A program made the translations under genes and the position numbers. The notes under the pieces were generated by a model. It ran no database searches, was not told the DNA's origin, and saw only the letters and a list, made by a program, of their open reading frames with translations. A DNA stretch of 64,000 nt from Kordiimonas sp. SCSIO 12610 (GTDB lineage: Bacteria; Pseudomonadota; Alphaproteobacteria; Sphingomonadales; Kordiimonadaceae): contig NZ_CP073747.1 in NCBI RefSeq assembly GCF_024398015.1, positions 2,477,001 through 2,541,000 of the forward strand. The letters are read 5' to 3'. The first letter of the stretch is position 1. The number at the start of each line of letters is the position of its first letter. Positions 54,752-54,846 of this stretch are shown here, piece by piece.

Positions 54752-54846
54752 GAATCCTTTTTGGATTCAGGTTTGTTTTCCGTGTAACTTTGAGCAGATT
54801 ATGATTCGAATCAGATTCTTCGTCAAGAGATTCTTTTAATTGAATC
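54752..54846 (-). promoter_or_regulatory. Cluster of seven GANTC methylation sites upstream of ccrM
   Basis: GAATC or GATTC occurs at 54752-54756, 54764-54768, 54803-54807, 54808-54812, 54814-54818, 54829-54833 and 54842-54846. Two of these abut to make the palindrome GATTCGAATC, and the first pair forms GGAATCC/GGATTC arms. A random 95-base stretch would be expected to hold fewer than one. The sites lie between rnhB and the ccrM start, so methylation by CcrM could control its own promoter. Confidence 0.9.

What the first reader, a model, noticed from the sequence alone, without database searches (positions are those of the whole stretch)
54752..54846. Seven GANTC sites within 95 bases in the ccrM promoter
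GANTC is the recognition site of the methylase encoded directly downstream. Random sequence would give about 0.4 sites in this length. Five of the seven lie within 44 bases, and two form a GATTCGAATC palindrome. In Caulobacter the ccrM promoter is sensitive to GANTC methylation, through GcrA/CcrM and leader sites; this is a denser arrangement than I am aware of.
Basis: partly seen in the sequence, partly recalled or inferred. Interest (0 to 1): 0.7.

Follow-up and report, generated by a model that had tools for sequence, protein, structure and literature searches.

The report
ccrM promoter built from methylation sites
The gene for a DNA-methylating enzyme is driven by a promoter whose core is packed with the enzyme's own target sites, in an arrangement kept across many families of alphaproteobacteria, so the enzyme probably switches its own gene on and off as DNA is copied and re-marked.

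Summary
In detail: seven GANTC sites lie at 54752-54846, the densest 95 bp for GANTC in this 3.5 Mb genome. Read on the minus strand they are not a loose cluster. Five decorate a sigma70-type promoter (TTGACG, 17 bp, CATAAT); two lie in the leader. Three fill the spacer, and the last shares a base (-12) with the -10 hexamer. The geometry is conserved. Of 93 ccrM loci in the order, 67 have TTGAC followed by two spacer GANTCs, and in 64 of those 67 the second site starts exactly 19 bases from the start of TTGAC. In a class-wide sample 30 of 91 loci have the composite; seven control pentamers give 0 or 1. Most likely function: methylation-responsive autoregulation of ccrM, a replication-triggered, self-limiting pulse. 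Sensitivity to methylation and its sign are inferred, not shown. GcrA is the obvious reader here (gcrA is present; the 12-bp palindrome is two head-to-head TGATTCG motifs), but the arrangement is as common in genomes where no GcrA was detected. A 2021 paper already predicted ccrM as a core GcrA target from motif presence; what I did not find in print is the locked core-promoter geometry and its independence of detectable GcrA.

The parts
53598..54725 (-). ccrM, GANTC adenine methyltransferase (375 aa)
   Evidence: NCBIfam NF050803 E 6.4e-192; 94 of 99 order genomes have a homologue
54821..54826 (-). -35 hexamer TTGACG
   Evidence: consensus scan 10 of 12 with the -10; TTGAC invariant in 26 distinct family sequences (they were aligned on it)
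54798..54803 (-). -10 hexamer CATAAT, 17 bp from the -35
   Evidence: A at -11 and T at -7 in 31 of 31 class loci with the locked site
54803..54807 (-). locked GANTC (site E, +19 from start of TTGAC, covers -16..-12, shares -12 with the -10)
   Evidence: at +19 in 64 of 67 order composites and 25 of 30 class composites
54808..54812 (-). GANTC at +14; with site E forms TGATTCGAATCA (54802-54813), two head-to-head TGATTCG
   Evidence: a site at +13 or +14 in 7 of 27 family loci
54814..54818 (-). GANTC just behind the -35 (site D, +8)
   Evidence: site at +7 to +9 in 78 of 91 anchored order loci (sum of counts)
54829..54833 (-). GANTC at -7 from TTGAC
   Evidence: present in 26 of 27 family loci
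54842..54846 (-). GANTC at -20 from TTGAC
   Evidence: present in 22 of 27 family loci
54752..54768 (-). two leader GANTCs forming an inverted repeat (6-bp arms, 5-base loop)
   Evidence: same places in the one other genome of the genus, L082, not in the other family loci
54883..54887 (-). GANTC inside the end of rnhB (-61 from TTGAC)
   Evidence: a site 41 bases before the -20 site recurs in many family loci
54719..54723 (-). GANTC in the first codons of ccrM
54857..55540 (-). rnhB (ribonuclease HII), upstream neighbour
   Evidence: NCBIfam ribonuclease HII over cut-off; rnhB-like ORF upstream of ccrM also in order loci such as L269 and L272

Best explanation
This is a methylation-responsive sigma70 promoter through which CcrM controls its own gene. 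Shown: a -35/-10 promoter whose spacer holds GANTC sites, one locked at -16..-12, kept across many families. Inferred: when the sites are fully methylated the promoter is weak; passage of the replication fork makes them hemimethylated and the promoter fires; the CcrM made then re-methylates its own promoter and ends the pulse, so the methylase is timed by replication of its own locus. In genomes with GcrA, as here, GcrA bound to methylated sites probably tunes the response; the locked site at the -10 may also act on RNA polymerase directly. That the promoter responds to methylation in some way I hold at about 0.85; the confidence below is for the whole statement with its negative, self-limiting sign.
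For: Chance excluded. Promoter with GANTCs in the spacer. Geometry locked at +19 in 64 of 67 order and 25 of 30 class composites; control pentamers give composites in 0 of 93 and 0-1 of 91. In 26 distinct family sequences the outer four bases of the locked site never vary and the middle N does, which is selection for the methylase site itself. -10 bases A-11 and T-7 kept in 31 of 31 class loci though not selected for. Precedents: ccrM is called most probably methylation-controlled in C. crescentus (PMC3973325 passage); at ctrA P1 hemimethylation was linked to activation and full methylation to silencing (PMC3667746 passages).
Against: No expression or methylation data for any genome used here. 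The sign is taken from C. crescentus, whose ccrM promoter is of another build. C. crescentus ftsN needs its GANTC for activity (PMC3885167 passage), the opposite sign. 37 of 91 class loci lack TTGAC followed by GANTC, so the arrangement is dispensable in many lineages.
Confidence: 0.5

Rival explanations
1. It is a GcrA-activated promoter with positive feedback: GcrA binds the methylated spacer sites, holds sigma70 and opens the promoter, so methylation by CcrM raises ccrM expression.
For: gcrA is present in the own genome. The own promoter holds two head-to-head TGATTCG, the extended motif tied to GcrA activation in C. crescentus (PMC7987155 passage). In family f1 the extended form YGAKTCG is met by 20 of 25 D and 24 of 27 E sites against 34 of 322 GANTCs in the genome sample. 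PMC7987155 predicts ccrM as a core GcrA target across 13 orders (section read). Sites between -35 and -10 go with activation at 40-60 min in C. crescentus (PMC4287350 passage).
Against: The composite is as frequent without detectable GcrA (9 of 22) as with it (21 of 69), Fisher p 0.44; a second search of those genomes found no convincing GcrA. The extended motif is absent in family f5 (0 of 18 D, 0 of 17 E) and mixed in the class (16 of 47, 8 of 31). Strict positive feedback would leave an unmethylated promoter hard to start.
Confidence: 0.3
2. The array is mainly a sequestration or timing platform: several close sites that CcrM must methylate one by one, or that a protein such as MucR shields, set a delay or a local hypomethylated state.
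For: Seven sites in 95 bp; shielding of GANTCs by MucR is known in C. crescentus and S. meliloti (PMC5172544 passages); CcrM is described as leaving the DNA after one site (PMC10073500 passage).
Against: A mere count of sites would not need one site locked to the base at the -10 (64 of 67 at +19), nor keep the other sites at fixed spacings within the family.
Confidence: 0.12
3. Chance, base composition, or coding sequence of an N-terminal extension of ccrM (open frame to a TTG at 54848).
For: The ORF list extends ccrM to 54848.
Against: 0 of 5000 shuffles reach seven. In relatives the frame is closed close to the ATG, for example a stop three bases before it in L001, while the sites keep their places. 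The middle base of the sites varies.
Confidence: 0.02

Closest known systems
GcrA/CcrM-controlled promoters of Caulobacter crescentus (ctrA P1, ftsN, mipZ, podJ P2; PMC3667746, PMC3885167, PMC4287350, passages read)
   Same: sigma70-type promoters with GANTC between or near -35 and -10 whose activity depends on methylation and GcrA
   Different: those passages show one site per promoter (ctrA P1 at -29, podJ P2 at -24); here two or three sites fill the spacer, one is fused to the -10, more lie upstream, and the gene is ccrM itself
Caulobacter crescentus ccrM promoter (Stephens et al., recalled; cited in PMC3973325 and PMC10073500)
   Same: ccrM promoter with GANTC sites and presumed methylation feedback
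   Different: there two sites and CtrA activation; here no CtrA-type box and the sites are in the core promoter
Predicted GcrA regulation of ccrM across Alphaproteobacteria (PMC7987155, section 11 part 2 read)
   Same: same gene, GANTC-based, wide in the class, lost in Caulobacterales
   Different: counts extended motifs in -200..+100 and ignores their place; does not describe the locked geometry or its presence without GcrA
Dam-regulated transposase promoters with GATC at the -10 (IS10; recalled, no call)
   Same: methylation site overlapping the -10, thought to be active when hemimethylated after replication
   Different: another methylase and site; not the methylase's own gene
Synthetic CcrM memory operon (PMC5458116, abstract in search listing only)
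   Same: CcrM under control that senses CcrM methylation
   Different: engineered zinc-finger reader; here a natural promoter

Membership tests
GcrA/CcrM methylation-dependent sigma70 promoters | sigma70-type -35 and -10 | tested here: met
   TTGACG-17-CATAAT, 10 of 12
GcrA/CcrM methylation-dependent sigma70 promoters | GANTC between -35 and -10 | tested here: met
   sites at +8, +14, +19 from the start of TTGAC
GcrA/CcrM methylation-dependent sigma70 promoters | extended motif TGATTCG / YGAKTCG | tested here: met
   two copies head to head in the own promoter; not met in family f5, mixed in the class
GcrA/CcrM methylation-dependent sigma70 promoters | GcrA encoded in the genome | tested here: met
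   PF07750 at 11374-11754, 151 bits for the whole protein; but the arrangement does not track GcrA across the class
GcrA/CcrM methylation-dependent sigma70 promoters | GcrA binding and methylation-dependent activity | not testable with these tools
   needs reporter, ChIP and in vitro transcription
Caulobacter-type ccrM promoter | CtrA box upstream | tested here: not met
   no TAACCAT in the own 350 bp (0 of 27 family loci) and no TTAA-N7-TTAA in the 130-bp gap (sequence)
Caulobacter-type ccrM promoter | GANTC sites in the leader | tested here: met
   +58 and +70 in the own genome, but 20 of 27 family loci have none
CcrM orphan methyltransferases | homology to CcrM | tested here: met
   NF050803 E 6e-192, 637 bits, below the curated cut-off of 830
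CcrM orphan methyltransferases | methylates GANTC | not testable with these tools
   indirect only: GANTC is depleted, 0.81 per kb against 2.1-4.7 for seven control pentamers

The most novel reading that the evidence does not exclude
An ancient self-sensing switch of the Alphaproteobacteria: RNA polymerase with sigma70 itself reads the methyl marks of a GANTC locked onto -12 of the ccrM core promoter, without need of GcrA, so CcrM times its own synthesis to replication of its locus; GcrA and CtrA control of ccrM were laid over it or replaced it in some lineages.
Probability: 0.25. Interest if true: 0.8.

Novelty: new variant of a known kind. Interest (0 to 1): 0.6.

Why it matters
How alphaproteobacteria outside Caulobacter and the Rhizobiales time their cell-cycle methylase is little studied. 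If ccrM is run by a core promoter made of its own target sites, methylation feedback and replication timing are hard-wired in about 120 bases and need no CtrA. The conserved geometry gives exact positions to mutate, and the genomes without detectable GcrA give a natural test of whether RNA polymerase reads m6A directly.

Tried and rejected
Coding explanation (open frame to TTG 54848): rejected. Uniqueness to this genome: rejected. Leader sites as the conserved feature: rejected; 20 of 27 family loci have none from 30 bases after the start of TTGAC to the reference codon. gcrA as an equally conserved partner: its leader in the own genome has three GANTCs, but only 10 of 28 readable family loci have three there (29 fetched, one start not found; my count), downstream of a separate TTGGCA/GATATAA-like promoter.

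Replacement of the array by CtrA boxes: only partly borne out. TAACCAT is in 19 of 80 named loci, one of them with the composite, and in 6 of 91 class loci, one with the composite; but in family f5 4 of 11 loci with TAACCAT have the composite.

One search used a wrong model accession (it hit an unrelated family) and nothing was drawn from it. Two GcrA papers (Wu 2018, Haakonsen 2015) are not held; what they say is cited only through passages of other papers. Rows dropped: G135 from the class set (92 matches, 91 used; N-terminus not covered) and G089 from the order set (94 matches, 93 used; partial match). The named loci L001-L080 are the best 80 of 592 confirmed and so lean towards close relatives.

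Literature searches for this arrangement in the held library: 'ccrM promoter'+GANTC (1 paper), GcrA+GANTC+ccrM (30), 'GANTC sites'+'upstream of ccrM' (0), CcrM+autoregulat+GANTC (3), Kordiimonas+CcrM (0), GcrA+sigma70+'methylated promoters' (27), GcrA+YGAKTCG (1), GcrA+crystal structure+methylated DNA (3), ccrM+promoter+GANTC+leader+methylation sites (2). Of these I opened passages or sections of PMC7987155, PMC3973325, PMC3667746, PMC2877005, PMC4287350, PMC7403470, PMC3885167, PMC11514494, PMC10073500 and PMC5172544. I therefore say only that I did not find the geometry there.

Full report
WHAT IS THERE. On the minus strand the window holds rnhB (54857-55540), a gap of about 130 bp, and ccrM (53598-54725). 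The gap holds the seven GANTCs exactly as reported; two more flank it at 54719 and 54883. GANTC is rare here: 59 in the window against 216.6 in shuffles, and 0.81 per kb in a 400 kb sample of the genome against 2.1-4.7 for the seven other palindromic pentamers of the same form. A scan of the whole genome for three GANTCs with gaps up to 30 found 22 places (the pattern read backwards gives 50). Those away from ccrM hold at most 8 sites in 119 bp, inside a long ORF. The ccrM gap is therefore the densest 95 bp for GANTC in this genome.

ANATOMY. A consensus scan finds TTGACG (54826-54821), 17 bp, CATAAT (54803-54798), 10 of 12 matches. Relative to the first T of TTGAC the GANTCs lie at -61, -20, -7, +8, +14, +19, +58, +70 and +103. 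Three are in the spacer. With the -10 hexamer numbered -12..-7, the one at +19 covers -16..-12, so its last C is the first base of the -10. The +14 and +19 sites form TGATTCGAATCA, two head-to-head copies of TGATTCG, which PMC7987155 gives as the extended motif linked to GcrA activation in C. crescentus (passage). This 12-mer is absent from the 400 kb sample. The two leader sites form a short inverted repeat.

CONSERVATION. I read the 350 bp upstream of ccrM residue 24 in 93 loci of the same order (94 of 99 genomes matched, one partial match dropped) and in 91 loci of a class-wide draw (92 of 123 matched, one dropped; every genome from a different family). In the order GANTC stands at 16.9 per kb there, the control pentamers at 1.3-3.4. 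At least five GANTCs are present in 74 of 93, and in 0 of 93 for every control. TTGAC followed within 16 bases by GANTC is in 91 of 93 (controls 1-12). The strict composite with two sites is in 67 of 93 (controls 0). By family it is in 25 of 27 (f1, the own one), 22 of 23 (f8), 12 of 25 (f5), 3 of 4 (f2), 1 of 4 (f4), 1 of 7 (f6), 2 of 2 (f7) and 1 of 1 (f3). In the class sample the figures are 8.9 per kb, 54 of 91 and 30 of 91 (controls 0-11 and 0-1). The second site starts 19 from the start of TTGAC in 64 of 67 and 25 of 30, while the gap to the first site slides between 1 and 5. Among the 31 class loci with a site at exactly +19, all 31 have A at -11 and T at -7, the bases that matter most in a -10 element (recalled), although neither was selected for; in f5 T at -7 is kept in only 10 of 17. 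In 26 distinct family sequences the G, A, T and C of the +19 site never vary and its middle base does. So what is conserved is the methylase site at a fixed place in a core promoter. In f1 the upstream sites at -20 (22 of 27) and -7 (26 of 27) are also fixed, and in 20 of 23 f8 loci a further site at +25 or +26 overlaps the other end of the -10.

SPECIFICITY. The composite TTGAC-N1..5-GANTC-N4..7-GANTC occurs once in the own genome, at ccrM, and in 85 of 99 order genomes at least once, mostly one to three times (the same pattern read backwards occurs 0-4 times per genome, once in the own). A second recurrent place in the order is a divIC/ftsB-like gene, with an enolase ORF just upstream in the two loci where that ORF was seen (Pfam DivIC in 4 of 4 tested). 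The own divIC/ftsB-like gene has a looser version, TTGCAG with two GATTC.

MECHANISM. From the literature: CcrM re-methylates GANTC late in the C. crescentus cycle, and GcrA binds methylated GANTC and sigma70 (PMC3667746 and PMC7403470, passages). At ctrA P1 full methylation extends the GcrA footprint over -35 to -10, and hemimethylation was linked to activation. At ftsN the site is needed for activity (PMC3885167, passage). By inference the array here makes ccrM output depend on its own product. I favour the self-limiting sign because it is the one proposed for ctrA P1 and commonly for C. crescentus ccrM, and because methyl groups at -15 and opposite -13 sit in the sigma-contacting part of the promoter (the last point from general knowledge). 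The opposite sign through GcrA remains quite possible.

AGAINST A PURE GcrA READING. Among the 91 class loci the composite is in 21 of 69 genomes with a PF07750 match and in 9 of 22 without (Fisher p 0.44); for the locked site it is 24 of 69 and 7 of 22. A second search of those 22 genomes with the own GcrA protein gave nothing better than E 0.05, while the two control genomes gave 5e-18 and 5e-21. Several of the 22 are rated 95-100% complete. A very diverged GcrA cannot be excluded. The extended GcrA motif is strong in f1 (20 of 25 D sites, 24 of 27 E sites; background 34 of 322) but absent in f5 (0 of 18, 0 of 17) and mixed in the class (16 of 47, 8 of 31). GcrA of B. subvibrioides also showed no extended motif (PMC7987155, passage).

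WHAT WAS KNOWN. PMC7987155 (section 11 part 2 read) lists ccrM as a probable core GcrA target in 13 orders from extended motifs in -200..+100, lost in Caulobacterales; its probability ignores the place of the sites in the promoter. PMC2877005 (section 8 read) counted GANTC upstream of cell-cycle genes in 2010, drew no conclusion on methylation control, and noted CtrA sites before ccrM in Rhizobia; many Rhizobium-type loci here lack GANTC and carry TAACCAT. I did not find the locked geometry described in the searches listed under Tried and rejected.

VERDICT. The sequence observation is right. It is a new variant of methylation-responsive promoters: a conserved ccrM core promoter built from CcrM sites. 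Function remains inferred.

Noticed in passing
G000:C1:11298-11329 (L111 1501-1532): Three GANTCs in the leader of gcrA, 76, 62 and 49 bases before its ATG; 10 of 28 readable family loci have three there, so it is less conserved than the ccrM array.
   Followed up: partly
L268, L273, L277, L278, L280, L282, L284, L286 (near 1500): A second recurrent TTGAC-GANTC-GANTC promoter in the order, just before the start of a divIC/ftsB-like gene; a looser form precedes the own copy (L379).
   Followed up: partly
G000:C1:1495757-1495874 (L123 1501-1618): Six GANTCs in about 118 bp between a flagellin-like gene and a DUF2336 gene of unknown function.
   Followed up: no
G000:C1:340357-340384 (L112 1501-1528): Three GANTCs in 28 bp just upstream of a 236-aa ORF without a Pfam match, next to rlmN.
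   Followed up: no
window 54752-54768: The two leader GANTCs form an inverted repeat, GAATCC-TTTTT-GGATTC, that could fold as a hairpin in the ccrM leader; only the own genus has it.
   Followed up: no
class sample, e.g. G142, G158, G177, G178, G212, G213: Genomes rated 95-100% complete that encode CcrM but gave no convincing GcrA by Pfam model or by the own protein.
   Followed up: partly
G000:C1 (sampled stretches L153-L172): GC skew is positive in the stretches from 0.18 to 1.8 Mb and mostly negative from 1.98 Mb on, suggesting an origin near the contig ends and a terminus near 1.9 Mb; ccrM (2.53 Mb) would lie mid-arm and gcrA (0.01 Mb) near the origin.
   Followed up: no
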